Positions 1 to 39,649 of a stretch of DNA of 64,000 bases are shown in pieces. The stretch spans positions 117,557,329-117,621,328 of the forward strand of contig OX235271.1 in the NCBI GenBank assembly GCA_944472155.2, written 5' to 3'. The DNA is from Trichobilharzia szidati (Eukaryota; Platyhelminthes; Trematoda; Strigeidida; Schistosomatidae). The position numbers were made by a program, and so were the translations under genes. The number at the start of each line of letters is the position of its first letter. Position 1 is the first letter of the stretch. The notes below the pieces were generated by a model. It saw only the letters and a list, made by a program, of their open reading frames with translations. It did no database searches and was not told the DNA's origin.

Positions 1-322
1 CAGTTCATTTGAATTATTATTTTGCAATCGAATTAAATTAACAAAGAAACTGTGTAATTGGCACAATCATCGTGTTTTCACTCTCCGTTGTCTGCAACAG
101 AATGCATATCGTAAATCCGTAGCTGTCGAGTCACCTGACAACTCCGGTAGGTCGAATGAAGCGGCTCAATCTTCAGAAAGAAGACAAAGCAATGAGTCCG
201 ACAGGGTGCTTCTACTAAACTCTAATCCTAAACACCATTATTTTGAAAGTACTTCTAATCATAAAATTCTAGATACTAACAGTTTGGACAGACATGAAGG
301 CGTGATGTTAGCTGATGCATAG
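1..322 (+). CDS. Satellite ORF, 3' part of a copy cut by the window edge
   Basis: The window opens inside a copy of the satellite ORF. It ends in TAG at 320-322 and matches the last 106 or so codons of the full copies. Confidence 0.4.
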   Translation, partial: SSFELLFCNRIKLTKKLCNWHNHRVFTLRCLQQNAYRKSVAVESPDNSGRSNEAAQSSERRQSNESDRVLLLNSNPKHHYFESTSNHKILDTNSLDRHEGVMLADA

Positions 323-639
323 GAAATCCTTATTAATAAATAAAAATGGATATGTATCACTAATTATTAATACTTGGTCGAAATTCTCCACTGTCCATAT
401 CTTCTTATGGAGACGTTAAGAAATGTTTTACAACTGTCCACCCACACACACATACACACTCTGTTTAAAGTGTTTAACACAGGTAGACCAATATTTGTAA
501 GTCCGAGGTCAAATTCCGATCACAGCTCATAAACTTTTGTTTATTATACTTGTTGAATGACTCATGATTGGAGAAAGTTTTTGAAAACAAGTGATGTTCC
601 TTTGATATATATACCTCTGTCATGTGAATTTCGATTAAT

Positions 640-684
640 TTCCCTGAAGAAGTTCGGACCAGATTTCCGAACGAAACCTCGGAA
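640..684 (+). ncRNA. Minimal type I hammerhead ribozyme, unit 1
   Basis: Stem I is TTCC (640-643) with GGAA (681-684). The core CTGAAGA (644-650) matches C3 U4 G5 A6 N7 G8 A9, followed by one extra A (651). Stem II is a perfect 7-bp GTTCGGA (652-658) with TCCGAAC (666-672) around a 7-nt loop. GAA (673-675) follows, then A15.1 (676), a two-base CC, U16.1 (679) and H17 = C (680), the predicted cleavage site. Stem III is therefore only the A-U pair, as in the very short stem III hammerheads reported from retroelements. An extra A after A9 is tolerated in a viroid hammerhead. Activity is inferred, not shown. ATG of the ORF lies 52 nt past the cleavage site. Confidence 0.75.
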
Positions 685-732
685 TTACTCATTTCAATCT
701 CGCTGACATTTTACAAATACAATTTTGTACAA

Positions 733-1113
733 ATGTCTACTTCTCACTCGGCGCCCAAATATTTGAGAACTATTCTGACAAATCTCGACGACAGTTCATT
801 TGAATTATTATTTTGCAATCGAATTAAATTAACAAAGAAACTGTGTAATTGGCACAATCATCGTGTTTTCACTCTCCGTTGTCTGCAACAGAATGCATAT
901 CGTAAATCCGTAGCTGTCGAGTCACCTGACAACTCCGGTAGGTCGAATGAAGCGGCTCAATCTTCAGAAAGAAGACAAAGCAATGAGTCCGACAGGGTGC
1001 TTCTACTAAATTCTAATCCTAAACACCATTATTTTGAAAGTACTTCTAATCATAAAATTCTAGATACTAACAGTTTGGACAGACATGAAGGCGTGATGTT
1101 AGCTGATGCATAG
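733..1113 (+). CDS. 126-residue ORF of the satellite unit, PLE-like N-terminal pattern
   Basis: The ORF starts at ATG 733, 52 nt after the predicted hammerhead cleavage site, and ends in TAG. An in-frame extension upstream exists in other units only through a non-ATG codon, so the ATG is preferred. Residues 20-60 have the spacing K-L..K-L...H-x2-V-F-x3-C, which resembles the short N-terminal helical region before the reverse transcriptase of Penelope-like elements. The second half is hydrophilic and Ser/Asn/Arg-rich with no recognised domain. No catalytic motif is visible. It may be the start of a PLE ORF captured in a pseudo-LTR, or it may not be translated. This copy has T where the others have S at residue 17. 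Confidence 0.4.
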   Translation: MSTSHSAPKYLRTILTNLDDSSFELLFCNRIKLTKKLCNWHNHRVFTLRCLQQNAYRKSVAVESPDNSGRSNEAAQSSERRQSNESDRVLLLNSNPKHHYFESTSNHKILDTNSLDRHEGVMLADA

Positions 1114-1432
1114 GAAATCCTTATTAATAAATAAAAATGGATATGTATCACTAATTATTAATACTTGGTCGAAATTCTCCACTGTCCATATCTTCTTATG
1201 GAGACGTTAAGAAATGTTTTACAACTGTCCACCCACACACACACATACACACTCCGTTTAAAGTGTTTAACACAGGTAGACCAATATTTGTAAGTCCGAG
1301 GTCAAATTCCGATCACAGCTCATAAACTTTTGTTTATTATACTTGTTGAATGACTCATGATTGGAGAAAGTTTTTGAAAACAAGTGATGTTCCTTTGATA
1401 TATATACCTCTGTCATGTGAATTTCGATTAAT

Positions 1433-1477
1433 TTCCCTGAAGAAGTTCGGACCAGATTTCCGAACGAAACCTTGGAA
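1433..1477 (+). ncRNA. Hammerhead ribozyme, unit 2
   Basis: Same fold as 640-684 except that H17 is T rather than C. All remaining units share this T. Confidence 0.73.
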
Positions 1478-1525
1478 TTACTCATTTCAATCTCGCTGAC
1501 ATTTTACAAATACAATTTTGTACAA

Positions 1526-1906
1526 ATGTCTACTTCTCACTCGGCGCCCAAATATTTGAGAACTATTCTGTCAAATCTCGACGACAGTTCATTTGAATTA
1601 TTATTTTGCAATCGAATTAAATTAACAAAGAAACTGTGTAATTGGCACAATCATCGTGTTTTCACTCTCCGTTGTCTGCAACAGAATGCATATCGTAAAT
1701 CCGTAGCTGTCGAGTCACCTGACAACTCCGGTAGGTCGAATGAAGCGGCTCAATCTTCAGAAAGAAGACAAAGCAATGAGTCCGACAGGGTGCTTCTACT
1801 AAACTCTAATCCTAAACACCATTATTTTGAAAGTACTTCTAATCATAAAATTCTAGATACTAACAGTTTGGACAGACATGAAGGCGTGATGTTAGCTGAT
1901 GCATAG
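1526..1906 (+). CDS. Satellite ORF, unit 2
   Basis: Full 126-codon copy, ATG 52 nt after predicted ribozyme cleavage. Confidence 0.4.
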   Translation: MSTSHSAPKYLRTILSNLDDSSFELLFCNRIKLTKKLCNWHNHRVFTLRCLQQNAYRKSVAVESPDNSGRSNEAAQSSERRQSNESDRVLLLNSNPKHHYFESTSNHKILDTNSLDRHEGVMLADA

Positions 1907-2223
1907 GAAATCCTTATTAATAAATAAAAATGGATATGTATCACTAATTATTAATACTTGGTCGAAATTCTCCACTGTCCATATCTTCTTATGGAGACGT
2001 TAAGAAATGTTTTACAACTGTCCACCCACACACACATACACACTCCGTTTAAAGTGTTTAACACAGGTAGACCAATATTTGTAAGTCCGAGGTCAAATTC
2101 CGATCACAGCTCATAAACTTTTGTTTATTATACTTGTTGAATGACTCATGATTGGAGAAAGTTTTTGAAAACAAGTGATGTTCCTTTGATATATATACCT
2201 CTGTCATGTGAATTTCGATTAAT

Positions 2224-2268
2224 TTCCCTGAAGAAGTTCGGACCAGATTTCCGAACGAAACCTTGGAA
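2224..2268 (+). ncRNA. Hammerhead ribozyme, unit 3
   Basis: Core, stem II and stem I bases are unchanged; H17 = T. Confidence 0.73.
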
Positions 2269-2316
2269 TTACTCATTTCAATCTCGCTGACATTTTACAA
2301 ATACAATTTTGTACAA

Positions 2317-2697
2317 ATGTCTACTTCTCACTCGGCGCCCAAATATTTGAGAACTATTCTGTCAAATCTCGACGACAGTTCATTTGAATTATTATTTTGC
2401 AATCGAATTAAATTAACAAAGAAACTGTGTAATTGGCACAATCATCGTGTTTTCACTCTCCGTTGTCTGCAACAGAATGCATATCGTAAATCCGTAGCTG
2501 TCGAGTCACCTGACAACTCCGGTAGGTCGAATGAAGCGGCTCAATCTTCAGAAAGAAGACAAAGCAATGAGTCCGACAGGGTGCTTCTACTAAACTCTAA
2601 TCCTAAACACCATTATTTTGAAAGTACTTCTAATCATAAAATTCTAGATACTAACAGTTTGGACAGACATGAAGGCGTGATGTTAGCTGATGCATAG
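2317..2697 (+). CDS. Satellite ORF, unit 3
   Basis: Full-length copy, same protein as unit 2. Confidence 0.4.
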   Translation: MSTSHSAPKYLRTILSNLDDSSFELLFCNRIKLTKKLCNWHNHRVFTLRCLQQNAYRKSVAVESPDNSGRSNEAAQSSERRQSNESDRVLLLNSNPKHHYFESTSNHKILDTNSLDRHEGVMLADA

Positions 2698-3014
2698 GAA
2701 ATCCTTATTAATAAATAAAAATGGATATGTATCACTAATTATTAATACTTGGTCGAAATTCTCCACTGTCCATATCTTCTTATGGAGACGTTAAGAAATG
2801 TTTTACAACTGTCCACCCACACACACATACACACTCCGTTTAAAGTGTTTAACACAGGTAGACCAATATTTGTAAGTCCGAGGTCAAATTCCGATCACAG
2901 CTCATAAACTTTTGTTTATTATACTTGTTGAATGACTCATGATTGGAGAAAGTTTTTGAAAACAAGTGATGTTCCTTTGATATATATACCTCTGTCATGT
3001 GAATTTCGATTAAT

Positions 3015-3059
3015 TTCCCTGAAGAAGTTCGGACCAGATTTCCGAACGAAACCTTGGAA
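3015..3059 (+). ncRNA. Hammerhead ribozyme, unit 4
   Basis: Unchanged fold, H17 = T. Confidence 0.73.
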
Positions 3060-3107
3060 TTACTCATTTCAATCTCGCTGACATTTTACAAATACAATTT
3101 TGTACAA

Positions 3108-3488
3108 ATGTCTACTTCTCACTCGGCGCCCAAATATTTGAGAACTATTCTGTCAAATCTCGACGACAGTTCATTTGAATTATTATTTTGCAATCGAATT
3201 AAATTAACAAAGAAACTGTGTAATTGGCACAATCATCGTGTTTTCACTCTCCGTTGTCTGCAACAGAATGCATATCGTAAATCCGTAGCTGTCGAGTCAC
3301 CTGACAACTCCGGTAGGTCGAATGAAGCGGCTCAATCTTCAGAAAGAAGACAAAGCAATGAGTCCGACAGGGTGCTTCTACTAAACTCTAATCCTAAACA
3401 CCATTATTTTGAAAGTACTTCTAATCATAAAATTCTAGATACTAACAGTTTGGACAGACATGAAGGCGTGATGTTAGCTGATGCATAG
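3108..3488 (+). CDS. Satellite ORF, unit 4
   Basis: Full-length copy, same protein as unit 2. Confidence 0.4.
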   Translation: MSTSHSAPKYLRTILSNLDDSSFELLFCNRIKLTKKLCNWHNHRVFTLRCLQQNAYRKSVAVESPDNSGRSNEAAQSSERRQSNESDRVLLLNSNPKHHYFESTSNHKILDTNSLDRHEGVMLADA

Positions 3489-3805
3489 GAAATCCTTATT
3501 AATAAATAAAAATGGATATGTATCACTAATTATTAATACTTGGTCGAAATTCTCCACTGTCCATATCTTCTTATGGAGACGTTAAGAAATGTTTTACAAC
3601 TGTCCACCCACACACACATACACACTCTGTTTAAAGTGTTTAACACAGGTAGACCAATATTTGTAAGTCCGAGGTCAAATTCCGATCACAGCTCATAAAC
3701 TTTTGTTTATTATACTTGTTGAATGACTCATGATTGGAGAAAGTTTTTGAAAACAAGTGATGTTCCTTTGATATATATACCTCTGTCATGTGAATTTCGA
3801 TTAAT

Positions 3806-3850
3806 TTCCCTGAAGAAGTTCGGACCAGATTTCCGAACGAAACCTTGGAA
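3806..3850 (+). ncRNA. Hammerhead ribozyme, unit 5
   Basis: Unchanged fold, H17 = T. Confidence 0.73.
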
Positions 3851-3898
3851 TTACTCATTTCAATCTCGCTGACATTTTACAAATACAATTTTGTACAA

Positions 3899-4279
3899 AT
3901 GTCTACTTCTCACTCGGCGCCCAAATATTTGAGAACTATTCTGTCAAATCTCGACGACAGTTCATTTGAATTATTATTTTGCAATCGAATTAAATTAACA
4001 AAGAAACTGTGTAATTGGCACAATCATCGTGTTTTCACTCTCCGTTGTCTGCAACAGAATGCATATCGTAAATCCGTAGCTGTCGAGTCACCTGACAACT
4101 CCGGTAGGTCGAATGAAGCGGCTCAATCTTCAGAAAGAAGACAAAGCAATGAGTCCGACAGGGTGCTTCTACTAAACTCTAATCCTAAACACCATTATTT
4201 TGAAAGTACTTCTAATCATAAAATTCTAGATACTAACAGTTTGGACAGACATGAAGGCGTGATGTTAGCTGATGCATAG
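3899..4279 (+). CDS. Satellite ORF, unit 5
   Basis: Full-length copy, same protein as unit 2. Confidence 0.4.
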   Translation: MSTSHSAPKYLRTILSNLDDSSFELLFCNRIKLTKKLCNWHNHRVFTLRCLQQNAYRKSVAVESPDNSGRSNEAAQSSERRQSNESDRVLLLNSNPKHHYFESTSNHKILDTNSLDRHEGVMLADA

Positions 4280-4596
4280 GAAATCCTTATTAATAAATAA
4301 AAATGGATATGTATCACTAATTATTAATACTTGGTCGAAATTCTCCACTGTCCATATCTTCTTATGGAGACGTTAAGAAATGTTTTACAACTGTCCACCC
4401 ACACACACATACACACTCTGTTTAAAGTGTTTAACACAGGTAGACCAATATTTGTAAGTCCGAGGTCAAATTCCGATCACAGCTCATAAACTTTTGTTTA
4501 TTATACTTGTTGAATGACTCATGATTGGAGAAAGTTTTTGAAAACAAGTGATGTTCCTTTGATATATATACCTCTGTCATGTGAATTTCGATTAAT

Positions 4597-4641
4597 TTCC
4601 CTGAAGAAGTTCGGACCAGATTTCCGAACGAAACCTTGGAA
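4597..4641 (+). ncRNA. Hammerhead ribozyme, unit 6
   Basis: Unchanged fold, H17 = T. Confidence 0.73.
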
Positions 4642-4689
4642 TTACTCATTTCAATCTCGCTGACATTTTACAAATACAATTTTGTACAA

Positions 4690-5070
4690 ATGTCTACTTC
4701 TCACTCGGCGCCCAAATATTTGAGAACTATTCTGTCAAATCTCGACGACAGTTCATTTGAATTATTATTTTGCAATCGAATTAAATTAACAAAGAAACTG
4801 TGTAATTGGCACAATCATCGTGTTTTCACTCTCCGTTGTCTGCAACAGAATGCATATCGTAAATCCGTAGCTGTCGAGTCACCTGACAACTCCGGTAGGT
4901 CGAATGAAGCGGCTCAATCTTCAGAAAGAAGACAAAGCAATGAGTCCGACAGGGTGCTTCTACTAAACTCTAATCCTAAACACCATTATTTTGAAAGTAC
5001 TTCTAATCATAAAATTCTAGATACTAACAGTTTGGACAGACATGAAGGCGTGATGTTAGCTGATGCATAG
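4690..5070 (+). CDS. Satellite ORF, unit 6
   Basis: Full-length copy, same protein as unit 2. Confidence 0.4.
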   Translation: MSTSHSAPKYLRTILSNLDDSSFELLFCNRIKLTKKLCNWHNHRVFTLRCLQQNAYRKSVAVESPDNSGRSNEAAQSSERRQSNESDRVLLLNSNPKHHYFESTSNHKILDTNSLDRHEGVMLADA

Positions 5071-5387
5071 GAAATCCTTATTAATAAATAAAAATGGATA
5101 TGTATCACTAATTATTAATACTTGGTCGAAATTCTCCACTGTCCATATCTTCTTATGGAGACGTTAAGAAATGTTTTACAACTGTCCACCCACACACACA
5201 TACACACTCTGTTTAAAGTGTTTAACACAGGTAGACCAATATTTGTAAGTCCGAGGTCAAATTCCGATCACAGCTCATAAACTTTTGTTTATTATACTTG
5301 TTGAATGACTCATGATTGGAGAAAGTTTTTGAAAACAAGTGATGTTCCTTTGATATATATACCTCTGTCATGTGAATTTCGATTAAT

Positions 5388-5432
5388 TTCCCTGAAGAAG
5401 TTCGGACCAGATTTCCGAACGAAACCTTGGAA
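5388..5432 (+). ncRNA. Hammerhead ribozyme, unit 7
   Basis: Unchanged fold, H17 = T. Confidence 0.73.
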
Positions 5433-5480
5433 TTACTCATTTCAATCTCGCTGACATTTTACAAATACAATTTTGTACAA

Positions 5481-5861
5481 ATGTCTACTTCTCACTCGGC
5501 GCCCAAATATTTGAGAACTATTCTGTCAAATCTCGACGACAGTTCATTTGAATTATTATTTTGCAATCGAATTAAATTAACAAAGAAACTGTGTAATTGG
5601 CACAATCATCGTGTTTTCACTCTCCGTTGTCTGCAACAGAATGCATATCGTAAATCCGTAGCTGTCGAGTCACCTGACAACTCCGGTAGGTCGAATGAAG
5701 CGGCTCAATCTTCAGAAAGAAGACAAAGCAATGAGTCCGACAGGGTGCTTCTACTAAACTCTAATCCTAAACACCATTATTTTGAAAGTACTTCTAATCA
5801 TAAAATTCTAGATACTAACAGTTTGGACAGACATGAAGGCGTGATGTTAGCTGATGCATAG
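5481..5861 (+). CDS. Satellite ORF, unit 7
   Basis: Full-length copy, same protein as unit 2. Confidence 0.4.
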   Translation: MSTSHSAPKYLRTILSNLDDSSFELLFCNRIKLTKKLCNWHNHRVFTLRCLQQNAYRKSVAVESPDNSGRSNEAAQSSERRQSNESDRVLLLNSNPKHHYFESTSNHKILDTNSLDRHEGVMLADA

Positions 5862-6178
5862 GAAATCCTTATTAATAAATAAAAATGGATATGTATCACT
5901 AATTATTAATACTTGGTCGAAATTCTCCACTGTCCATATCTTCTTATGGAGACGTTAAGAAATGTTTTACAACTGTCCACCCACACACACATACACACTC
6001 TGTTTAAAGTGTTTAACACAGGTAGACCAATATTTGTAAGTCCGAGGTCAAATTCCGATCACAGCTCATAAACTTTTGTTTATTATACTTGTTGAATGAC
6101 TCATGATTGGAGAAAGTTTTTGAAAACAAGTGATGTTCCTTTGATATATATACCTCTGTCATGTGAATTTCGATTAAT

Positions 6179-6223
6179 TTCCCTGAAGAAGTTCGGACCA
6201 GATTTCCGAACGAAACCTTGGAA
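6179..6223 (+). ncRNA. Hammerhead ribozyme, unit 8
   Basis: Unchanged fold, H17 = T. Confidence 0.73.
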
Positions 6224-6271
6224 TTACTCATTTCAATCTCGCTGACATTTTACAAATACAATTTTGTACAA

Positions 6272-6652
6272 ATGTCTACTTCTCACTCGGCGCCCAAATA
6301 TTTGAGAACTATTCTGTCAAATCTCGACGACAGTTCATTTGAATTATTATTTTGCAATCGAATTAAATTAACAAAGAAACTGTGTAATTGGCACAATCAT
6401 CGTGTTTTCACTCTCCGTTGTCTGCAACAGAATGCATATCGTAAATCCGTAGCTGTCGAGTCACCTGACAACTCCGGTAGGTCGAATGAAGCGGCTCAAT
6501 CTTCAGAAAGAAGACAAAGCAATGAGTCCGACAGGGTGCTTCTACTAAACTCTAATCCTAAACACCATTATTTTGAAAGTACTTCTAATCATAAAATTCT
6601 AGATACTAACAGTTTGGACAGACATGAAGGCGTGATGTTAGCTGATGCATAG
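6272..6652 (+). CDS. Satellite ORF, unit 8
   Basis: Full-length copy, same protein as unit 2. Confidence 0.4.
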   Translation: MSTSHSAPKYLRTILSNLDDSSFELLFCNRIKLTKKLCNWHNHRVFTLRCLQQNAYRKSVAVESPDNSGRSNEAAQSSERRQSNESDRVLLLNSNPKHHYFESTSNHKILDTNSLDRHEGVMLADA

Positions 6653-6969
6653 GAAATCCTTATTAATAAATAAAAATGGATATGTATCACTAATTATTAA
6701 TACTTGGTCGAAATTCTCCACTGTCCATATCTTCTTATGGAGACGTTAAGAAATGTTTTACAACTGTCCACCCACACACACATACACACTCTGTTTAAAG
6801 TGTTTAACACAGGTAGACCAATATTTGTAAGTCCGAGGTCAAATTCCGATCACAGCTCATAAACTTTTGTTTATTATACTTGTTGAATGACTCATGATTG
6901 GAGAAAGTTTTTGAAAACAAGTGATGTTCCTTTGATATATATACCTCTGTCATGTGAATTTCGATTAAT

Positions 6970-7014
6970 TTCCCTGAAGAAGTTCGGACCAGATTTCCGA
7001 ACGAAACCTTGGAA
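6970..7014 (+). ncRNA. Hammerhead ribozyme, unit 9
   Basis: Unchanged fold, H17 = T. Confidence 0.73.
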
Positions 7015-7062
7015 TTACTCATTTCAATCTCGCTGACATTTTACAAATACAATTTTGTACAA

Positions 7063-7443
7063 ATGTCTACTTCTCACTCGGCGCCCAAATATTTGAGAAC
7101 TATTCTGTCAAATCTCGACGACAGTTCATTTGAATTATTATTTTGCAATCGAATTAAATTAACAAAGAAACTGTGTAATTGGCACAATCATCGTGTTTTC
7201 ACTCTCCGTTGTCTGCAACAGAATGCATATCGTAAATCCGTAGCTGTCGAGTCACCTGACAACTCCGGTAGGTCGAATGAAGCGGCTCAATCTTCAGAAA
7301 GAAGACAAAGCAATGAGTCCGACAGGGTGCTTCTACTAAACTCTAATCCTAAACACCATTATTTTGAAAGTACTTCTAATCATAAAATTCTAGATACTAA
7401 CAGTTTGGACAGACATGAAGGCGTGATGTTAGCTGATGCATAG
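7063..7443 (+). CDS. Satellite ORF, unit 9
   Basis: Full-length copy, same protein as unit 2. Confidence 0.4.
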   Translation: MSTSHSAPKYLRTILSNLDDSSFELLFCNRIKLTKKLCNWHNHRVFTLRCLQQNAYRKSVAVESPDNSGRSNEAAQSSERRQSNESDRVLLLNSNPKHHYFESTSNHKILDTNSLDRHEGVMLADA

Positions 7444-7760
7444 GAAATCCTTATTAATAAATAAAAATGGATATGTATCACTAATTATTAATACTTGGTC
7501 GAAATTCTCCACTGTCCATATCTTCTTATGGAGACGTTAAGAAATGTTTTACAACTGTCCACCCACACACACATACACACTCTGTTTAAAGTGTTTAACA
7601 CAGGTAGACCAATATTTGTAAGTCCGAGGTCAAATTCCGATCACAGCTCATAAACTTTTGTTTATTATACTTGTTGAATGACTCATGATTGGAGAAAGTT
7701 TTTGAAAACAAGTGATGTTCCTTTGATATATATACCTCTGTCATGTGAATTTCGATTAAT

Positions 7761-7805
7761 TTCCCTGAAGAAGTTCGGACCAGATTTCCGAACGAAACCT
7801 TGGAA
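7761..7805 (+). ncRNA. Hammerhead ribozyme, unit 10
   Basis: Unchanged fold, H17 = T. Confidence 0.73.
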
Positions 7806-7853
7806 TTACTCATTTCAATCTCGCTGACATTTTACAAATACAATTTTGTACAA

Positions 7854-8234
7854 ATGTCTACTTCTCACTCGGCGCCCAAATATTTGAGAACTATTCTGTC
7901 AAATCTCGACGACAGTTCATTTGAATTATTATTTTGCAATCGAATTAAATTAACAAAGAAACTGTGTAATTGGCACAATCATCGTGTTTTCACTCTCCGT
8001 TGTCTGCAACAGAATGCATATCGTAAATCCGTAGCTGTCGAGTCACCTGACAACTCCGGTAGGTCGAATGAAGCGGCTCAATCTTCAGAAAGAAGACAAA
8101 GCAATGAGTCCGACAGGGTGCTTCTACTAAACTCTAATCCTAAACACCATTATTTTGAAAGTACTTCTAATCATAAAATTCTAGATACTAACAGTTTGGA
8201 CAGACATGAAGGCGTGATGTTAGCTGATGCATAG
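7854..8234 (+). CDS. Satellite ORF, unit 10
   Basis: Full-length copy, same protein as unit 2. Confidence 0.4.
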   Translation: MSTSHSAPKYLRTILSNLDDSSFELLFCNRIKLTKKLCNWHNHRVFTLRCLQQNAYRKSVAVESPDNSGRSNEAAQSSERRQSNESDRVLLLNSNPKHHYFESTSNHKILDTNSLDRHEGVMLADA

Positions 8235-8551
8235 GAAATCCTTATTAATAAATAAAAATGGATATGTATCACTAATTATTAATACTTGGTCGAAATTCTC
8301 CACTGTCCATATCTTCTTATGGAGACGTTAAGAAATGTTTTACAACTGTCCACCCACACACACATACACACTCTGTTTAAAGTGTTTAACACAGGTAGAC
8401 CAATATTTGTAAGTCCGAGGTCAAATTCCGATCACAGCTCATAAACTTTTGTTTATTATACTTGTTGAATGACTCATGATTGGAGAAAGTTTTTGAAAAC
8501 AAGTGATGTTCCTTTGATATATATACCTCTGTCATGTGAATTTCGATTAAT

Positions 8552-8596
8552 TTCCCTGAAGAAGTTCGGACCAGATTTCCGAACGAAACCTTGGAA
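8552..8596 (+). ncRNA. Hammerhead ribozyme, unit 11
   Basis: Unchanged fold, H17 = T. Confidence 0.73.
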
Positions 8597-8644
8597 TTAC
8601 TCATTTCAATCTCGCTGACATTTTACAAATACAATTTTGTACAA

Positions 8645-9025
8645 ATGTCTACTTCTCACTCGGCGCCCAAATATTTGAGAACTATTCTGTCAAATCTCGA
8701 CGACAGTTCATTTGAATTATTATTTTGCAATCGAATTAAATTAACAAAGAAACTGTGTAATTGGCACAATCATCGTGTTTTCACTCTCCGTTGTCTGCAA
8801 CAGAATGCATATCGTAAATCCGTAGCTGTCGAGTCACCTGACAACTCCGGTAGGTCGAATGAAGCGGCTCAATCTTCAGAAAGAAGACAAAGCAATGAGT
8901 CCGACAGGGTGCTTCTACTAAACTCTAATCCTAAACACCATTATTTTGAAAGTACTTCTAATCATAAAATTCTAGATACTAACAGTTTGGACAGACATGA
9001 AGGCGTGATGTTAGCTGATGCATAG
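8645..9025 (+). CDS. Satellite ORF, unit 11
   Basis: Full-length copy, same protein as unit 2. Confidence 0.4.
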   Translation: MSTSHSAPKYLRTILSNLDDSSFELLFCNRIKLTKKLCNWHNHRVFTLRCLQQNAYRKSVAVESPDNSGRSNEAAQSSERRQSNESDRVLLLNSNPKHHYFESTSNHKILDTNSLDRHEGVMLADA

Positions 9026-9342
9026 GAAATCCTTATTAATAAATAAAAATGGATATGTATCACTAATTATTAATACTTGGTCGAAATTCTCCACTGTCCA
9101 TATCTTCTTATGGAGACGTTAAGAAATGTTTTACAACTGTCCACCCACACACACATACACACTCTGTTTAAAGTGTTTAACACAGGTAGACCAATATTTG
9201 TAAGTCCGAGGTCAAATTCCGATCACAGCTCATAAACTTTTGTTTATTATACTTGTTGAATGACTCATGATTGGAGAAAGTTTTTGAAAACAAGTGATGT
9301 TCCTTTGATATATATACCTCTGTCATGTGAATTTCGATTAAT

Positions 9343-9387
9343 TTCCCTGAAGAAGTTCGGACCAGATTTCCGAACGAAACCTTGGAA
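9343..9387 (+). ncRNA. Hammerhead ribozyme, unit 12
   Basis: Unchanged fold, H17 = T. Confidence 0.73.
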
Positions 9388-9435
9388 TTACTCATTTCAA
9401 TCTCGCTGACATTTTACAAATACAATTTTGTACAA

Positions 9436-9816
9436 ATGTCTACTTCTCACTCGGCGCCCAAATATTTGAGAACTATTCTGTCAAATCTCGACGACAGTTC
9501 ATTTGAATTATTATTTTGCAATCGAATTAAATTAACAAAGAAACTGTGTAATTGGCACAATCATCGTGTTTTCACTCTCCGTTGTCTGCAACAGAATGCA
9601 TATCGTAAATCCGTAGCTGTCGAGTCACCTGACAACTCCGGTAGGTCGAATGAAGCGGCTCAATCTTCAGAAAGAAGACAAAGCAATGAGTCCGACAGGG
9701 TGCTTCTACTAAACTCTAATCCTAAACACCATTATTTTGAAAGTACTTCTAATCATAAAATTCTAGATACTAACAGTTTGGACAGACATGAAGGCGTGAT
9801 GTTAGCTGATGCATAG
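9436..9816 (+). CDS. Satellite ORF, unit 12
   Basis: Full-length copy, same protein as unit 2. Confidence 0.4.
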   Translation: MSTSHSAPKYLRTILSNLDDSSFELLFCNRIKLTKKLCNWHNHRVFTLRCLQQNAYRKSVAVESPDNSGRSNEAAQSSERRQSNESDRVLLLNSNPKHHYFESTSNHKILDTNSLDRHEGVMLADA

Positions 9817-10133
9817 GAAATCCTTATTAATAAATAAAAATGGATATGTATCACTAATTATTAATACTTGGTCGAAATTCTCCACTGTCCATATCTTCTT
9901 ATGGAGACGTTAAGAAATGTTTTACAACTGTCCACCCACACACACATACACACTCTGTTTAAAGTGTTTAACACAGGTAGACCAATATTTGTAAGTCCGA
10001 GGTCAAATTCCGATCACAGCTCATAAACTTTTGTTTATTATACTTGTTGAATGACTCATGATTGGAGAAAGTTTTTGAAAACAAGTGATGTTCCTTTGAT
10101 ATATATACCTCTGTCATGTGAATTTCGATTAAT

Positions 10134-10178
10134 TTCCCTGAAGAAGTTCGGACCAGATTTCCGAACGAAACCTTGGAA
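10134..10178 (+). ncRNA. Hammerhead ribozyme, unit 13
   Basis: Unchanged fold, H17 = T. Confidence 0.73.
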
Positions 10179-10226
10179 TTACTCATTTCAATCTCGCTGA
10201 CATTTTACAAATACAATTTTGTACAA

Positions 10227-10607
10227 ATGTCTACTTCTCACTCGGCGCCCAAATATTTGAGAACTATTCTGTCAAATCTCGACGACAGTTCATTTGAATT
10301 ATTATTTTGCAATCGAATTAAATTAACAAAGAAACTGTGTAATTGGCACAATCATCGTGTTTTCACTCTCCGTTGTCTGCAACAGAATGCATATCGTAAA
10401 TCCGTAGCTGTCGAGTCACCTGACAACTCCGGTAGGTCGAATGAAGCGGCTCAATCTTCAGAAAGAAGACAAAGCAATGAGTCCGACAGGGTGCTTCTAC
10501 TAAACTCTAATCCTAAACACCATTATTTTGAAAGTACTTCTAATCATAAAATTCTAGATACTAACAGTTTGGACAGACATGAAGGCGTGATGTTAGCTGA
10601 TGCATAG
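10227..10607 (+). CDS. Satellite ORF, unit 13
   Basis: Full-length copy, same protein as unit 2. Confidence 0.4.
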   Translation: MSTSHSAPKYLRTILSNLDDSSFELLFCNRIKLTKKLCNWHNHRVFTLRCLQQNAYRKSVAVESPDNSGRSNEAAQSSERRQSNESDRVLLLNSNPKHHYFESTSNHKILDTNSLDRHEGVMLADA

Positions 10608-10924
10608 GAAATCCTTATTAATAAATAAAAATGGATATGTATCACTAATTATTAATACTTGGTCGAAATTCTCCACTGTCCATATCTTCTTATGGAGACG
10701 TTAAGAAATGTTTTACAACTGTCCACCCACACACACATACACACTCTGTTTAAAGTGTTTAACACAGGTAGACCAATATTTGTAAGTCCGAGGTCAAATT
10801 CCGATCACAGCTCATAAACTTTTGTTTATTATACTTGTTGAATGACTCATGATTGGAGAAAGTTTTTGAAAACAAGTGATGTTCCTTTGATATATATACC
10901 TCTGTCATGTGAATTTCGATTAAT

Positions 10925-10969
10925 TTCCCTGAAGAAGTTCGGACCAGATTTCCGAACGAAACCTTGGAA
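10925..10969 (+). ncRNA. Hammerhead ribozyme, unit 14
   Basis: Unchanged fold, H17 = T. Confidence 0.73.
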
Positions 10970-11017
10970 TTACTCATTTCAATCTCGCTGACATTTTACA
11001 AATACAATTTTGTACAA

Positions 11018-11398
11018 ATGTCTACTTCTCACTCGGCGCCCAAATATTTGAGAACTATTCTGTCAAATCTCGACGACAGTTCATTTGAATTATTATTTTG
11101 CAATCGAATTAAATTAACAAAGAAACTGTGTAATTGGCACAATCATCGTGTTTTCACTCTCCGTTGTCTGCAACAGAATGCATATCGTAAATCCGTAGCT
11201 GTCGAGTCACCTGACAACTCCGGTAGGTCGAATGAAGCGGCTCAATCTTCAGAAAGAAGACAAAGCAATGAGTCCGACAGGGTGCTTCTACTAAACTCTA
11301 ATCCTAAACACCATTATTTTGAAAGTACTTCTAATCATAAAATTCTAGATACTAACAGTTTGGACAGACATGAAGGCGTGATGTTAGCTGATGCATAG
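11018..11398 (+). CDS. Satellite ORF, unit 14
   Basis: Full-length copy, same protein as unit 2. Confidence 0.4.
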   Translation: MSTSHSAPKYLRTILSNLDDSSFELLFCNRIKLTKKLCNWHNHRVFTLRCLQQNAYRKSVAVESPDNSGRSNEAAQSSERRQSNESDRVLLLNSNPKHHYFESTSNHKILDTNSLDRHEGVMLADA

Positions 11399-11715
11399 GA
11401 AATCCTTATTAATAAATAAAAATGGATATGTATCACTAATTATTAATACTTGGTCGAAATTCTCCACTGTCCATATCTTCTTATGGAGACGTTAAGAAAT
11501 GTTTTACAACTGTCCACCCACACACACATACACACTCTGTTTAAAGTGTTTAACACAGGTAGACCAATATTTGTAAGTCCGAGGTCAAATTCCGATCACA
11601 GCTCATAAACTTTTGTTTATTATACTTGTTGAATGACTCATGATTGGAGAAAGTTTTTGAAAACAAGTGATGTTCCTTTGATATATATACCTCTGTCATG
11701 TGAATTTCGATTAAT

Positions 11716-11760
11716 TTCCCTGAAGAAGTTCGGACCAGATTTCCGAACGAAACCTTGGAA
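11716..11760 (+). ncRNA. Hammerhead ribozyme, unit 15
   Basis: Unchanged fold, H17 = T. Confidence 0.73.
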
Positions 11761-11808
11761 TTACTCATTTCAATCTCGCTGACATTTTACAAATACAATT
11801 TTGTACAA

Positions 11809-12189
11809 ATGTCTACTTCTCACTCGGCGCCCAAATATTTGAGAACTATTCTGTCAAATCTCGACGACAGTTCATTTGAATTATTATTTTGCAATCGAAT
11901 TAAATTAACAAAGAAACTGTGTAATTGGCACAATCATCGTGTTTTCACTCTCCGTTGTCTGCAACAGAATGCATATCGTAAATCCGTAGCTGTCGAGTCA
12001 CCTGACAACTCCGGTAGGTCGAATGAAGCGGCTCAATCTTCAGAAAGAAGACAAAGCAATGAGTCCGACAGGGTGCTTCTACTAAACTCTAATCCTAAAC
12101 ACCATTATTTTGAAAGTACTTCTAATCATAAAATTCTAGATACTAACAGTTTGGACAGACATGAAGGCGTGATGTTAGCTGATGCATAG
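11809..12189 (+). CDS. Satellite ORF, unit 15
   Basis: Last full-length copy. A truncated one begins at ATG 12600 and loses similarity by about 12650. Confidence 0.4.
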   Translation: MSTSHSAPKYLRTILSNLDDSSFELLFCNRIKLTKKLCNWHNHRVFTLRCLQQNAYRKSVAVESPDNSGRSNEAAQSSERRQSNESDRVLLLNSNPKHHYFESTSNHKILDTNSLDRHEGVMLADA

Positions 12190-12506
12190 GAAATCCTTAT
12201 TAATAAATAAAAATGGATATGTATCACTAATTATTAATACTTGGTCGAAATTCTCCACTGTCCATATCTTCTTATGGAGACGTTAAGAAATGTTTTACAA
12301 CTGTCCACCCACACACACATACACACTCTGTTTAAAGTGTTTAACACAGGTAGACCAATATTTGTAAGTCCGAGGTCAAATTCCGATCACAGCTCATAAA
12401 CTTTTGTTTATTATACTTGTTGAATGACTCATGATTGGAGAAAGTTTTTGAAAACAAGTGATGTTCCTTTGATATATATACCTCTGTCATGTGAATTTCG
12501 ATTAAT

Positions 12507-12551
12507 TTCCCTGAAGAAGTTCGGACCAGATTTCCGAACGAAACCTTGGAA
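12507..12551 (+). ncRNA. Hammerhead ribozyme, unit 16
   Basis: Last copy, unchanged fold, H17 = T. The downstream ORF is cut short by the array boundary. Confidence 0.73.
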
Positions 12552-12870
12552 TTACTCATTTCAATCTCGCTGACATTTTACAAATACAATTTTGTACAAA
12601 TGTCTACTTCTCACTCGGCGCCCAAATATTTTACAACTATTCTTTCAAATATTTTTCACATTTCGCATGAATATAATTCAGATATGTCATATGTTTTTTC
12701 TGGTTCATGAAGTTTTTAAAGAAAATAAAGAATGTATCTCCAGATTCATTGTAATTTGCATTTTTATATGAAATCTCTAATCTCTGTTACCAGTATATGT
12801 TTTATATCCTTTATTTACACCTGACCTTATAACTTTGAATGAAACCTACATATAATTTGATTTTGATTTA

Positions 12871-13872: not shown

Positions 13873-14938
13873 TACTTCGTTATATAGACAGACAAATGGT
13901 GTTGCTATGGGTTCACCAGTCTCCCCAATAGTCGCCGACCTCTACCTGAATAGATTCCAAAATAACATCTTTTCAAGCATACTCACTCCTAAAATATGGT
14001 TAAGATATCTACTTTTGTAGTACTAAAACGAGATCTACACAATTCATTCCTGGAGAGAATAAACTGTGTATCTCCCAAAAATCCAGGTCACTTCGGAAGC
14101 AGAATCAGACGTCGGGGAACTACCATTTCTAGCCTGCCTAGTTAGGAGAAGGGGAAACGGACATTTTGGTATATCCATATTCAGTAAGAAAACCCACTCC
14201 GATAAATATTTAGACTTCAAATCATCACACCCCATCAGCGCAAAGATTTCAGTTGTTTCAAGTCTTCTTAGACGAGCACACTCTCTGACAACCGACGAGA
14301 AAGAAAAAGAAGAAATATCAAACATTACTGAAACTCTCAAGCAAAACAACTACCCATGGAACTTCATCAACAAAATCAACACAGACATTAAGTATAGCCG
14401 AAAACGCATTCCGAAAACATGGACATCAACAGTCGTCATTCCATATAGAGCAGAGACGTCAGACGATATCAGAAGAGTACTCAATCAGCTCGACATTAGA
14501 GTTTTCTTCAAAACACCAGACACACTTCAAAGCAACCTTACCCATATAAAAGACCAAATCCCCAAAGATTCTCTATCTAATTGTGTCTATAAAATAAAAT
14601 GCTTGGAATGTGATGCGATATACATCGGACAAACATCTCGAGAAATCGAAATCAGAAGAAATGAACACCATAGAGCATCTCTTCGACCACCGAGAAATCC
14701 AACTGAACTGGAAAAACTTGAAAAATCATCAGCCATAGGTCTACATGCTTTAGAATCAGGTCACAAAATTGATTTTGACAGTATTGAAATAATCCAGAAA
14801 AACTTCAGAAATCACAAAGAACGTCTAATATCAGAAGCCCTTCATATCAAGTGGAATCCAAATTGTCTGAACAGGAATGATGGACTAAAACAGAATCTGA
14901 CCTTGTTATTTATTTTTATATTTTTGGTTCCAGCTTGA
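13873..14938 (+). pseudogene. Penelope-like element RT and GIY-YIG endonuclease remnant
   Basis: The region opens in RT with an MGSPVSPIVADLYLN motif (about 13909-13955), typical of PLE reverse transcriptase, and is then broken by stops near 14016-14030, so the catalytic Asp motif is lost. From 14066 an open stretch of 290 codons covers the RT C-terminal part (KTHSDKYLDF, SHPISAK) and a GIY-YIG domain near residues 170-285. The GIY-YIG domain has VYKIKC...YIGQT, then an R-x2-EH motif, and NPNCLN near the end. In PLEs the RT copies element RNA and GIY-YIG nicks the target. The copy is 5'-truncated and dead. The last codons run into SINE copy 3. Confidence 0.85.
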
Positions 14939-19560: not shown

Positions 19561-19724
19561 GGATTGTGAAATCTCCAATGACCTTGAGCGCATGCTAGTC
19601 GTTGGCTAACGGCATCTGTCATTATCACAGCTGAAATATCAATGGTATACACCAACTTAGGAGCAAATTTCACCCAGATCACGTTTTTAAGAACTGTTTG
19701 GACAATGTGTTAGTAGCTCGTTAG

Positions 19725-19870
19725 GGTTAGGATTAGGGTTAAGGTAAGTATTGGGGTTATGGTTAGGATCAGGGTTAGAATTTCTGTTTGAATAAGGGTT
19801 ATGATTAGGATTAAGGTTAGGTTTAGTGTTAGGGTCAGAATTAAGCTTACGGTTAGGATCAGGGATAGAT
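19725..19870 (+). repeat. Degenerate TTAGGG-type tract inside element A
   Basis: A run of GGTTAGG/TTAGGGTT-like hexamers and variants on the plus strand, such as GTTAGGGTTAGGATTAGGG at the left. TTAGGG is the telomere repeat of many animals including schistosomes. The minus strand reads as a PN-rich peptide, which I regard as non-functional. Confidence 0.75.
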
Positions 19871-34676: not shown

Positions 34677-35690
34677 TGCTACTTTCGGACTCCCCTCATT
34701 TATGCTGATTGTTGTCTGTTGTTGTTGCTTTTAGTAAGGAATGTTCATCATTTCTGTTTTCTCTATGTTCACCTAAAGTCTTATCTTTGATGCTTATTCC
34801 TCCAACATGTTGTTTTGCACTCACAATCTTCCATTTTGTGGGAAATCAGATGTATATTATCCGCGAAGTCCAGATTCTGCAAGTGTTTTGTGCGGGTCCA
34901 TTTCATGCCTGTTTCCTCGCTGCCATTTCCTCTCTCTGCCGCATCATCCAGTCTACCATAATCAGTAAAATCGTTGGAGATAGTAGACAGGCTTGTCTTA
35001 CTCCCATCATCACTTCAAAGAGTTACGTGAACTTCCCGTTGTTGATTACTTGGCATACAGCATTGTCGGTCGACTGTTGGATGAGGTGTATAGTTGTCAG
35101 CGGCACCCCGTATTAGCGAAGTAGCTGCCAAATCACCTCTTGACCAACGCTGTCGAAGGCCTTTTCAAAGTCAGTGAAGCTGAGATAGAGGGCTGACTGC
35201 CATTCCAAGCTCTGCTCAGTGATGTTCCGTAGTGCTGCGATTGAATCGATAGATGACTTGTTTCTCCTGAATCCATCCTGTTCCGGTAGAAGATTTTATC
35301 CAGGGACTTTTTGATCCTGTCCGGGATGACGCAGCTTAGTATTTTACTTGAGACGGATAGGAGCATGATGTATCACTAGTTCTCGTATTGACTAAAGTTT
35401 CCTTTTTTTGTTAATTTGAATAGGTAGCCTTTATTCTAATCTGTGGGTACCTTGCCCTCTTTCCACACCTTCTCCAGTGGTTGTGTCAACAGGTTCGCTG
35501 ATGTCTCTGGGTCCATTTTCAGTAATTCTGCTGAGATTCTGTCAGATCCTGCCACTTTTCCAGGTTTTAGCACCTTGATTGCCTTCAGGATTTCCGTTTC
35601 CGTCGGAGGGTTGATGTCCGCTGGTAGTTCTGCTTCCGCTGTTGGTATTATTGGGTGCGTTGTAGGTGGCAGTCGATTTAGAAGTATTTT
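34677..35690 (-). pseudogene. RTE-type LINE RT, left (3') part
   Basis: The minus strand shows LLNRLPPTTHPIIP, EILKAIKVLKPGKVAGSDRISAELLK, EKVWKEGKVPTD, LLSVSSKILSCVIPDRIKK, then a degraded second catalytic box NLDFADNI (FADD changed to FADN). The order and motifs fit an RTE-type (SR2-like) reverse transcriptase. Stops and shifts occur throughout. The upstream (5') part is at 51742-52205, on the other side of gypsy array C. Confidence 0.82.
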
Positions 35691-35884
35691 GCGGTGATTG
35701 ACTATTTCTATCTTTGTATTGTTTAAATACTTACTGTTGTTTGTTAATATATTTATTATTTTGATTTGAAAATAGAATTCCGCCAAATACAAATTCCTAA
35801 ATTCATCCCTCTCAGTGTTTTGGTTGAGTTCCTGTAATTCGGTCATTGCGAAATACAATACTACTAGTACAAATAACAATCACA
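35691..35884 (+). repeat. LTR 1 of array C (5' outer)
   Basis: Lacks the first bases of the full LTR (GCGGTGATTG here against TGTGGCGGATGTGGTGATTG) and has one unique T to A change in CTTTGTATTG. Confidence 0.88.
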
Positions 35885-35887
35885 TTT

Positions 35888-35905
35888 TGGCGTCGCAATG
35901 GAATT
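35888..35905 (+). promoter_or_regulatory. Primer binding site of array C unit 1
   Basis: TGGCGTCGCA starts 3 nt after the LTR and runs into the gag ATG at 35898, so an 18-nt site would overlap the first codons. The same arrangement recurs before 39867, 43843 and 47798. Confidence 0.6.
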
Positions 35906-38900
35906 AAATAATCTTGGAAAGTTTCCTATAAATGGTTCACCGCGGGAAATCTCCGATTATCTTGAATGTTTCGACGCATGGTGCATGTCGAAGAATGTTC
36001 GCGATGACAAAATTCCAGCTCATTTTATTACTGCTGTTGGGCTAGATGCGTACAGCCTACTGAAAACTCTGTCATTTCCAGATAAACCAATTTCTCTGTC
36101 TTATGATAAACTCCGTGAACTTTTAACAAATCACTTCCACATAACAACTTTCGAAACACGAGAGAGGGCTCAGTTCAACAAACTTGTTCGTGCTCCCAAC
36201 CAGAAGATTAGAGACTTTATTCTTCAACTTCAGATACAAGCTTCAAAATGCAACTTTGGAGATCAGCTCCATACTCAACTACGTGATCGTCTAATTGCTG
36301 GAATCAATATTCCTAAGTTAGAGAAAGAGTTGGTTCAGATACCTTCCTGCACCTTTCAAACTGCCAAGGATTTATGTATTACGTATGAAGATGTCAACAG
36401 TGACTACCCAGCTGCCACTACGTCAGAGTCTGATGTCATGCTGTCCAAAGTTGATAATAAAAGTGTTCATAGAAAGAAATCCAAACTGCCGTCCACATGT
36501 AATAGAATGCATACAGAAGGCAAGAACATCAAACCGTGTTTTTCATGTGGAAAGCTTCATCTGCGAAGCACTTGTCGTTTTCGGAGTGCTAAGTGCCATA
36601 AATGTGGTAAAATTGGGCACATCAAGTCTGTTTGCAGAAGTTCAAATACTTACGCTACTCATGATTCTCCCAAACTGTCCGATAAAATGAAGTCAATGTC
36701 TCTTTCAACTTTTCACAATACTCAATCTCATCTAGTGAGAAACTTCACTACAAGTTCAGGCAAGTCTCACTGTTTTATAATTGATACTGGGAGTACTGAA
36801 TCTATAATTTCTAAGAAAGATTTACTATCGCTTTGTAAGCATGCTCAGGTAGACCCTACTACTAGTTCAATTACAGGCATAACTGGTCATAAACTACCTC
36901 TTATTGGTGCAACCAACATTTGTTTGAAGTCAGACAGTGGTAATTTTGTGAATATCCCCTTTCTTGTTAGTGAATATGGTCCATCTTTATTGGGATTGAA
37001 AGCCCTTAGATTGTTAAATGTTGAAATCTCACTTTGTACTGAGTTGTTTGATGAATCTTTGTTCAGAGAATTAGTTTTTCAATGTTCAAAGTGTGTAGGT
37101 GGCATGAAGATTCAGCCCATCCATCTTGAAATAGAGGGTGATCCTATCTTCCTAAAGCGCCGATTAATTCCATATGGTTTGCGAGATGCAGTTAAGAAAG
37201 AGTTGGACAAGTTGGTTGAGCAGGGCATACTTATGGCAGTTGAATCTTCGAATTGGGCTACTCCCATTGTCACACCACTAAAGGCTGACGGAAAAACACC
37301 GAGAATTTGTGGTGACTATCGCCTTACACTCAATAGTCGTCTTCTACAGCAAAGTTGCACTACGCTAGAAAGCGAAGATATTCTCTACAAGCTACATGGC
37401 TCAAAATACTTTTCCAAAATAGATCTAAAAGATGCTTATTTGCAAATTCCTCTTGACGAAGCTTCTAGTGCATTAACAACCATTAATACTCCATTTGGAT
37501 TGTTCAAGAATAAGTTCTTGCCTTTTGGTTTAAAGGTTTCTCCTGCAATATTTCAAAAAGTAATAAATCAGATGATAGACGGATTAGATGGTGTTGAGTC
37601 TTACCAAGACGACATTATAGTTCATGGTCCGAACATCGAATTGCATAATCAACGTCTTTTAAAACTGTTCAGGCGCTTCTGTGAGAAAAATGTTCTTATT
37701 AATCCATCTAAATGTCATTTTACTTTGTCGTCTGTATCATGCTTGGGATATACAGTAGACTCTGAGGGTTTCAGACCTGATGCTAGGCGTTTGGCACCTC
37801 TAATTCAAGCACCGTCACCTAATAATATGACGTCGTTGAGATCATGGATTGGCACTCTTCAATTTTACTCCAGATTCATTCCCAATTTCACTCAACTGTT
37901 ATCTCCACTTTTTAATATTGTCTCCAGTAAACAATTTAAGTGGGAACAACAACATGAAGATATCTTGCGAAAAACTTTGGAGTTTCTTAATAAACAAGCT
38001 TTCTTAAGACCTTTTTCATCGAAAGATAAGTGCGTTCTCACTACAGATGCTTCTCCTACGGGTATAGCTGCAGTACTTGAGCAAAATGGACAACCTGTTA
38101 TTTGTATTTCAAGACGTCTAAGTAAGAGTGAACTAGGGTACTCACAAACCCAGAAAGAGGCTCTAGCAGTAGTATGGGCAATAAGACGCTTGCACAAGTA
38201 TCTCTTTGGTACTAAGTTTCACATAGTTACTGATCATCAGGCTTTGAAATTCATTTACAACCCAGAAAAATCTTTGAATAGATCATCTGCTGCTATGGTT
38301 CAAAGATGGAGTTTAGAACTAAGTGCATATGATTACACTATTGAACACAGATCGGCTAAGGATATACCTCATGCAGACTTTTTATCTCGTTATTCATTAT
38401 TTGAAAATTCTGCTAATGACACTGATTGTTTGTTAGTCCAGCCGTTACCTGTGGATAGAGTTCGACTTATAAACGATACTCGGAAATATTACGGGTGCAT
38501 TATAAATGCAACAAAAAGAGGTTGGAATATTCAGTGTAAGCGAAGATTTCCGGACTTTTATAAGCGAAGAGATGAGATTTCAGTCCATCCTGAAGGATTT
38601 CTATGTCTGAATGACAGAATTATTATTCCTCCAATATTAAGATCTGCGATTTTGGATGATCTTCATTCTGCTCATCTGGGAGCTGATAAGATGAAATCAT
38701 TAGCACGTCTAACATGTTGGTGGCCGGAAATTGATGCTGACATTAACAAAAGATCGAAGAGCTGTTCCAGCTGTTTGCATAAAATGTCCTATGGGAAGTC
38801 GTCGTGGAAACCGTGGCCTACGTCTTGTGAGGTTTGGCAGCGTATTCATGCAGATTACTGTGGTCCATTCTTAAATTCATACTATGCTTTAATTATTGTG

Positions 38901-39625: not shown

Positions 39626-39649
39626 AAATACGCAAGGAGACATTCGACA

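What the first reader, a model, noticed from the sequence alone, without database searches (positions are those of the whole stretch)
1..12650. Tandem 791-bp satellite with a conserved-core hammerhead ribozyme in every unit
All 16 units keep C3 U4 G5 A6 N7 G8 A9, a perfect 7-bp stem II, G12 A13 A14, the A15.1-U16.1 pair and a 4-bp stem I. If active, a long transcript of the array would cut itself into 791-nt monomers, each starting about 52 nt before the ORF. Hammerhead-bearing tandem repeats are known (schistosome, salamander, cave cricket, plant retrozymes), but I do not recognise this unit, its 791-bp length or its ORF.
Basis: partly seen in the sequence, partly recalled or inferred. Interest (0 to 1): 0.9.

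Follow-up and report, generated by a model that had tools for sequence, protein, structure and literature searches.

The report
Stripped-down Penelope jumping-gene satellite
Sixteen near-identical 791-base repeats in the genome of a blood fluke (likely the bird parasite Trichobilharzia szidati) are copies of a stripped-down Penelope-type jumping gene that lacks the copying and cutting enzymes, likely spreads with enzymes borrowed from fuller relatives in the same genome, and carries in every unit a predicted self-cutting RNA motif that in this block is predicted to be weaker than in its scattered relatives.

Summary
The array is real: 16 head-to-tail units (791 bp; unit 2 is 793), bounded on the left by a 499-N gap; an unplaced contig holds 21 more unit segments. 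All 16 match a minimal type I hammerhead descriptor, absent from the window's other strand and from 15.4 Mb of random sequence.

The unit is best read as a non-autonomous Penelope-like element (PLE). Its ORF matches the PLE N-terminal domain and lacks RT and endonuclease. TATA box, hammerhead and ATG follow in the same order and at similar distances in open-frame PLEs of the same genome. The 38 dispersed copies examined end at two sites around the ORF start; 12 of 12 PLE copies examined also end at two such sites. 20 of 32 have target-site duplications of 8 bp or more (control 6.6%); 27 of 38 carry an inverted partial copy. Tandem PLEs with such hammerheads are known; a 791-bp stripped form building a satellite is a new variant. 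Cleavage, RNA and mobilisation in trans are untested.

The parts
1..12650 (+). Tandem array, 16 units of 791 bp (unit 1 and unit 16 incomplete in register; unit 2 793 bp); left end is an assembly gap, right end at unit position 785 (ORF +51)
1583..2373 (+). Reference unit used for all unit coordinates in this report
2190..2197 (+). TATATATA box (unit 608-615), predicted promoter, about 30 nt upstream of hammerhead stem I; present in 16 of 16 units; TATATAAA in 28 of 33 dispersed loci readable there
   Evidence: promoter function inferred
2224..2268 (+). Minimal type I hammerhead motif of the reference unit (CTGAAGA at 2228, predicted cut after 2264)
640..12551 (+). Span of the 16 hammerhead motifs; CTGANGA begins at 644, 1437, 2228, 3019, 3810, 4601, 5392, 6183, 6974, 7765, 8556, 9347, 10138, 10929, 11720, 12511; each motif runs from 4 nt before to 40 nt after that base
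2317..2697 (+). ORF of the reference unit, 126 aa plus stop; PLE N-terminal domain without RT or endonuclease; the same ORF recurs along the array (15 copies listed as open)
2318..2322 (+). First preferred 3' end of dispersed copies (unit 736-740, ORF +2 to +6); range over 6 loci is 728-740
2385..2398 (+). Second preferred 3' end of dispersed copies (unit 12-25, ORF +69 to +82); 32 of 38 loci fall in unit 4-28
14063..14938 (+). Neighbouring fragment of a different PLE-like ORF (GIY-YIG end); not part of the array, 1.4 kb away

Best explanation
The array is a tandem block of a non-autonomous Penelope-like retroelement: each 791-bp unit carries a predicted TATA promoter, a predicted minimal type I hammerhead, and an ORF for only the PLE N-terminal domain, and its copies were likely inserted in trans by the reverse transcriptase-endonuclease of fuller PLEs in the same genome. 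Shown: tandem structure, hammerhead core, N-terminal homology, no RT or GIY-YIG match in the unit, two 3' end sites around the ORF start in unit copies and in PLEs, target-site duplications and inverted pieces in dispersed copies, and open PLE frames elsewhere in the genome. Inferred: transcription starts just before the hammerhead of one unit and runs into the next; only a tandem array gives a transcript with a whole unit, so arrays would be the source loci and single copies dead ends; the PLE protein would bind near the ORF start and begin copying inside it. The hammerhead would trim the 5' end of such transcripts, most likely acting as a dimer of neighbouring units; in this array it is predicted to be weak because the ACGU palindrome is ACCU.
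For: N-terminal homology: a profile of 19 PLE N-termini gives 33.3 bits (dispersed copy L017), 23.3 (array unit) and 21.5 (T. regenti protein) against a best of 11.2 in 3000 shuffles; hhalign probability 94% over 73 columns. Fuller PLEs: 55 scored matches in the genome (of 138146 first-look candidates), 90-100% identical, 41 of 55 without an inner stop, several spaced at about 3 kb in tandem; the query ORF has Pfam RVT_1. TATATAAA box, hammerhead-like motif and ATG in the same order in 6 of 6 PLE spacers fetched; cut to ATG 56-60 nt against 52 nt, box to stem I 31 nt against 30 nt in the unit. Ends: 38 of 38 dispersed copies end at unit 4-28 (32) or 728-740 (6); 12 of 12 PLE copies examined end at ORF +4 to +13 (4) or +43 to +52 (8); the array ends at ORF +51. 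Border repeats of at least 8 bp in 20 of 32 loci with both borders against 6.6% of 992 mispaired controls; at least 10 bp in 15 of 32 against 0.6%. Inverted partial copy in 27 of 38. Tails, inverted copies and duplications of this kind are described for PLEs in PMC3846280 (passages), internal start of reverse transcription in PMC11167929 (main text). Hammerhead stretch varies less than the unit as a whole: 1.27% against 2.75%; 0.5% of windows are as low.
Against: No parent PLE with the same terminal sequence was found (the genome search for it did not complete); the non-coding part of the unit has no significant similarity to the spacers of the PLE family examined, and the main 3' site of dispersed copies (ORF about +74) lies 22-31 nt beyond that of those PLEs (+43 to +52). 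The GIY-YIG part of the L021 PLE is assigned by similarity only; Pfam gives no GIY-YIG hit for it, and the window fragment hits below cut-off (E 0.017). The ORF tail does not match the PLE C-terminus significantly. Minor changes in 13 ORF copies from 9 loci are 44/26/43 by codon position, so no clear sign that the truncated protein is kept by selection; 14 of 21 full-length ORF copies are open. No Rfam hammerhead match in the array, in 4 dispersed copies or in 2 PLE spacers. 17 of 63 dispersed hammerheads fail a loose core pattern. Folding energy of the motif is no better than shuffles. No RNA data.
Confidence: 0.85

Rival explanations
1. Retrozyme-like cycle: transcripts of the array cut themselves at every hammerhead, the 791-nt monomers are closed into circles by a host ligase, and the circles are reverse transcribed.
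For: Hammerhead core in 16 of 16 units; animal retrozymes use type I hammerheads and circles, and PLEs are proposed as their mobilisers (PMC7229834, PMC7761336, passages). Copying around a circle would allow the uninterrupted hammerhead regions seen in dispersed copies, and 8 of 38 copies start at unit 2-37 with direct lengths of 784-804 nt, about one turn.
Against: The motif is the minimal kind with an extra nucleotide and no stem III; the unit is 791 bp with an ORF against about 150-400 bp for animal retrozymes; the pile-up near one unit length may come from the search, which scored only 38 of 2374 candidates.
Confidence: 0.25
2. Ordinary satellite: the array grew by unequal crossing-over or DNA rolling circle from a dead PLE terminal repeat, and the hammerhead is a relic.
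For: Units 3-15 are almost identical in blocks (464C>T in units 5-16 and unit 1, not in units 2-4), as expected of DNA-level homogenisation; the ACCU variant is predicted to weaken the ribozyme; no selection seen on the ORF.
Against: The family is dispersed with border duplications and precise ends, so the unit itself has been mobile; the hammerhead stretch is less variable than the rest. This rival can be true of the array and false of the family.
Confidence: 0.4
3. The hammerhead is a chance or coding-driven pattern, kept because it encodes PEEVRTR..PNETLE upstream of the ORF.
For: The motif lies in an open frame that reads into the ORF, and the T. regenti protein model keeps this peptide.
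Against: No match in 15.4 Mb of random sequence; 6 of 6 PLE spacers have a hammerhead-like motif at the same place with different sequence.
Confidence: 0.03

Closest known systems
Penelope-like elements of the Penelope/Poseidon type, e.g. PAc of Anolis (PMC11167929) and Pen1-Pen6 of Adineta vaga (PMC3846280)
   Same: Tandem or partial-tandem units, hammerhead near the ORF start (PAc), internal start sites and tail, head-to-head inverted partial copies, target-site duplications, N-terminal domain
   Different: No RT and no GIY-YIG match in the unit; 791 bp, against about 3 kb spacing of the PLE tandems in this genome; a satellite of 16 units plus 21 unit segments on an unplaced contig
Minimal PLE hammerheads that cleave as dimers (Lunse et al. 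2017; title seen in reference lists, paper not held)
   Same: Type I, no real stem III; dispersed members have ACGU between A14 and H17, self-complementary between two copies
   Different: Array has ACCU; extra A before stem II (an extra nucleotide in a viroid hammerhead core is the subject of De la Pena and Flores 2001, title seen in a reference list; its position recalled)
Metazoan non-LTR retrozymes (PMC7229834, passages)
   Same: Tandem, non-autonomous, type I hammerhead, proposed to depend on PLEs (PMC7761336, passages)
   Different: Those are about 170-400 nt; most invertebrate ones adopt a stable helix III (PMC7761336); here 791 bp, ORF, promoter-like box, PLE sequence ancestry
SMalpha and W-element families of Schistosoma mansoni (PMC8490949, passages)
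   Same: Schistosome repeats with type I hammerheads and very short stem III
   Different: Described as SINE-like or W-satellite families; no PLE domain or PLE-type ends in the passages read

Membership tests
Penelope-like element, autonomous | Telomerase-like reverse transcriptase in the ORF | tested here: not met
   126-aa ORF, no Pfam match up to E 10
Penelope-like element, autonomous | GIY-YIG endonuclease | tested here: not met
   No Pfam match in the unit ORF
Non-autonomous derivative of a PLE | Sequence homology to a PLE | tested here: met
   N-terminal profile 21.5-33.3 bits against at most 11.2 in 3000 shuffles; hhalign 94%
Non-autonomous derivative of a PLE | PLE-type insertion ends (two sites at or inside the ORF start), inverted piece, target-site duplication | tested here: met
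   38 of 38, 27 of 38, 20 of 32; PLE copies of the same genome 12 of 12 for the ends
Non-autonomous derivative of a PLE | A parent PLE with the same terminal sequence | tested here: inconclusive
   Spacers of one PLE family do not match; the whole-genome search for the parent did not complete
Minimal type I hammerhead ribozyme | CTGANGA, stem II, GAAA, A15.1-U16.1, H17, stem I | tested here: met
   16 of 16 units, with one extra nucleotide before stem II
Minimal type I hammerhead ribozyme | Match to an Rfam hammerhead model | tested here: not met
Minimal type I hammerhead ribozyme | Self-cleavage at the predicted site | not testable with these tools
   needs RNA work
Metazoan retrozyme | Short non-coding unit of about 150-400 bp | tested here: not met
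   791 bp with an ORF
Metazoan retrozyme | Circular RNA of unit length | not testable with these tools
   no RNA data

The most novel reading that the evidence does not exclude
A Penelope-derived retrozyme: an element that keeps only the PLE promoter, hammerhead, RNA start sites and N-terminal domain, replicates solely from its tandem arrays because only a tandem transcript spans a whole unit, and so turns a retrotransposon into a self-renewing satellite; it would be the physical link between PLEs and animal retrozymes.
Probability: 0.4. Interest if true: 0.75.

Novelty: new variant of a known kind. Interest (0 to 1): 0.58.

Why it matters
A review calls the role of the minimal hammerheads in PLEs unknown and names PLEs as likely mobilisers of animal retrozymes (PMC7761336, passages). 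This family offers a small natural substrate: a 791-nt element with hammerhead and start sites but without the enzymes, beside open-frame PLEs in one genome, plus natural hammerhead variants (ACGU and ACCU; C3-G8 in the unit, A3-U8 in the PLEs). It makes the questions 'is the hammerhead needed' and 'does the PLE protein act in trans' directly testable, and suggests how a satellite can arise from a PLE.

Tried and rejected
Rfam hammerhead models: no match at gathering score in the window, nor at E up to 10 in window 600-1600 or in 4 dispersed and 2 PLE loci. RNA folding: the stems are recovered but the energy is no better than shuffles (z 0.03, -0.77, -0.84). A PLE C-terminal (LNR) match in the ORF tail looked plausible by eye, but the three test sequences ranked 33rd, 56th and 618th of 4777 and lower with a looser profile; rejected. 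The neighbouring GIY-YIG fragment (14063-14938) as the 3' half of the array element: rejected, as two tRNA-like repeat stretches lie between (near 12966 and 13585) and the array ends at 12650. Purifying selection on the ORF: not seen. Papers on non-autonomous PLEs: five phrases in one search gave one paper, on butterflies (listing only). One search lists nine papers holding Penelope, non-autonomous, hammerhead and tandem; the passages I read from four of them do not describe this family; PMC4918200, PMC11722881, PMC9695139, PMC6431247 and PMC12477314 were not opened. The hammerhead cut as 5' end of insertions: two of 38 copies start at 684 and 686 (predicted 683), others scatter; inconclusive. 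An index slip made its stem III column wrong; I do not use it and count the pairs from the sequence.
Full report
Check of the observation. The 791-bp array is present at window 1-12650 with 16 units. Units 3 to 15 differ at no more than one site from each other; unit 1 has C at the predicted cleavage position and unit 2 two extra bases. The 499 bases before the window are N. A 126-bp piece of the unit matches 21 further places at 791 or 793-bp spacing on the unplaced contig C453, each identical over those 126 bp (40 of 267 candidates scored), so the block has at least 37 units if that contig fills the gap, which is inferred. In one search the array itself was not among the scored places; the tool warns that it skips very common words.

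Hammerhead. A descriptor with a 4-bp stem I, CTGANGA, up to one extra base, stem II of 5-7 bp, GAAA, two bases, T, H hits 16 of 16 units on the + strand and nothing on the - strand or in 15.4 Mb of first-order random sequence; it was written after seeing the motif. 16 of 16 have the extra base. In the reference unit (window 1583-2373) CTGAAGA starts at unit 646, the cut is predicted after 682, and ATG is at 735. Stem I can extend by three pairs past a bulged U (sequence). Rfam models do not recognise it.

Host. The ORF has an 83%-identical relative of full coverage and a shorter one in Trichobilharzia regenti; the longer ends at the same residue. The genome is 1.114 Gb in 907 contigs; a PLE protein named as Trichobilharzia szidati lies on a contig of 179,022,751 bases, the length of contig C8 here, so the genome is very likely T. 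szidati. PLE RT fragments of this species are in print (PMC4465651, passages).

Dispersed copies. The 38 distinct loci were fetched, at about 89-98% identity. Most are about one unit long; L017 and L025 hold three and four units, L055-L057 more than one. The 3' end of the direct part falls at unit 4-28 in 32 of 38 and at 728-740 in 6 of 38. 27 of 38 have an inverted partial copy, 13 of the 27 with the outer end at 735-742. For 32 loci with both borders in the stretch, 20 have a repeat of at least 8 bp at the two borders against 6.6% of 992 mispaired borders. The other 6 were left out because my narrow stretches cut a border. The first 17 copies share no common continuation beyond their 3' ends. 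The search favours long copies, so nothing can be said about short insertions.

PLE ancestry. By chance L021 holds an uninterrupted 827-aa PLE ORF with a Pfam RVT_1 domain; its endonuclease part is 40% identical to the window's GIY-YIG fragment but gives no Pfam GIY-YIG hit of its own. The genome has 55 scored matches at 90-100% identity, 41 without an inner stop, several in tandem. A profile of 19 PLE N-termini scores the unit ORF family at 21.5-33.3 bits; the best of 3000 shuffles is 11.2. The match covers the stretch written NHR.F..RC......PKS in dispersed copies (PKS is RKS in the array). The rest of the ORF and the non-coding part show no significant match. In 6 of 6 PLE spacers a TATATAAA box, a hammerhead-like motif and the ATG lie in the same order as in the unit: box to stem I 31 nt (30 in the unit), cut to ATG 56-60 nt (52 in the unit). 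12 of 12 PLE copies whose 3' flanks were fetched end at ORF +4 to +13 or +43 to +52; the window array ends at +51. PAc of Anolis starts reverse transcription inside the ORF, most often 111-118 bp in, and the tail lies between two start sites (PMC11167929). A. vaga PLEs show pLTR tandems, inverted copies, tails and 8-10 bp duplications (PMC3846280, passages).

How it works. The best account is a non-autonomous PLE. A single inserted unit has its promoter-like box inside, so its own transcript would hold only about 170 nt of element (126 after a cut); a whole unit can be transcribed from its own promoter only in a tandem. Arrays would therefore be the sources, as partial tandems are for PLEs. 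The templates of the examined insertions were not cut at the internal hammerhead, in line with PAc, where unprocessed RNA is the main substrate and the ribozyme needs the protein (PMC11167929). In the array the two bases between A15.1 and U16.1 are CC; 60 of 63 dispersed hammerheads have ACGTTG there, that is ACGU. Two ACGU strands can form four pairs, two ACCU strands only two (sequence). [quoted passage not shown] Lunse et al., title). I therefore predict weak cleavage in the array. The hammerhead stretch is less variable than the family average (1.27% against 2.75%; 0.5% of windows of that length are as low), which favours a role in the past or present; still, 17 of 63 fail a loose core pattern and 10 of 63 carry insertions.

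Natural variant. In 6 of 6 PLE spacers the core reads ATGATTA instead of CTGANGA, that is A3 and U8 in place of C3 and G8, again with one extra base before stem II. C3 and G8 pair in the folded ribozyme (recalled), and a C3G/G8C double change keeps partial activity (PMC11167929), so A3-U8 looks like a compensated pair. No match of that looser descriptor occurs in 3.1 Mb of random sequence. The six spacers are close relatives, so this is one variant, not six. Activity is untested.

Verdict. Observation confirmed; interpretation partly supported; a new variant of known PLE and retrozyme kinds rather than a new system.

Noticed in passing
L032-L037 (PLE spacers), e.g. L032 392-433: Open-frame PLEs carry a hammerhead-like motif with A3 and U8 instead of C3 and G8 (a compensated core pair) and one extra base before stem II, 6 of 6 spacers of one family.
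   Followed up: partly
window 35690-51738: Tandem array of an LTR element (RT, RNase H and integrase domains): four bodies sharing 194-bp terminal repeats, pieces 98.5-99.6% identical, period 3.95-3.98 kb.
   Followed up: partly
G000 contig C453:375-16324: Unplaced contig with 21 segments of the same 791-bp repeat, probably from the assembly gap left of the window.
   Followed up: no
window 19720-19864: Degenerate TTAGGG-like repeats inside the chromosome.
   Followed up: no
window near 12966, 13585 and 15029: tRNA-like, SINE-like stretches (GCGTYGGCAGGG followed by CCCGGACCATG) around the PLE fragment.
   Followed up: no
L016, L019 and other dispersed copies at unit 674-676: 10 of 63 dispersed hammerhead stretches carry insertions, 9 of them of 4 nt near the stem II-GAAA junction and of varied sequence.
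   Followed up: no
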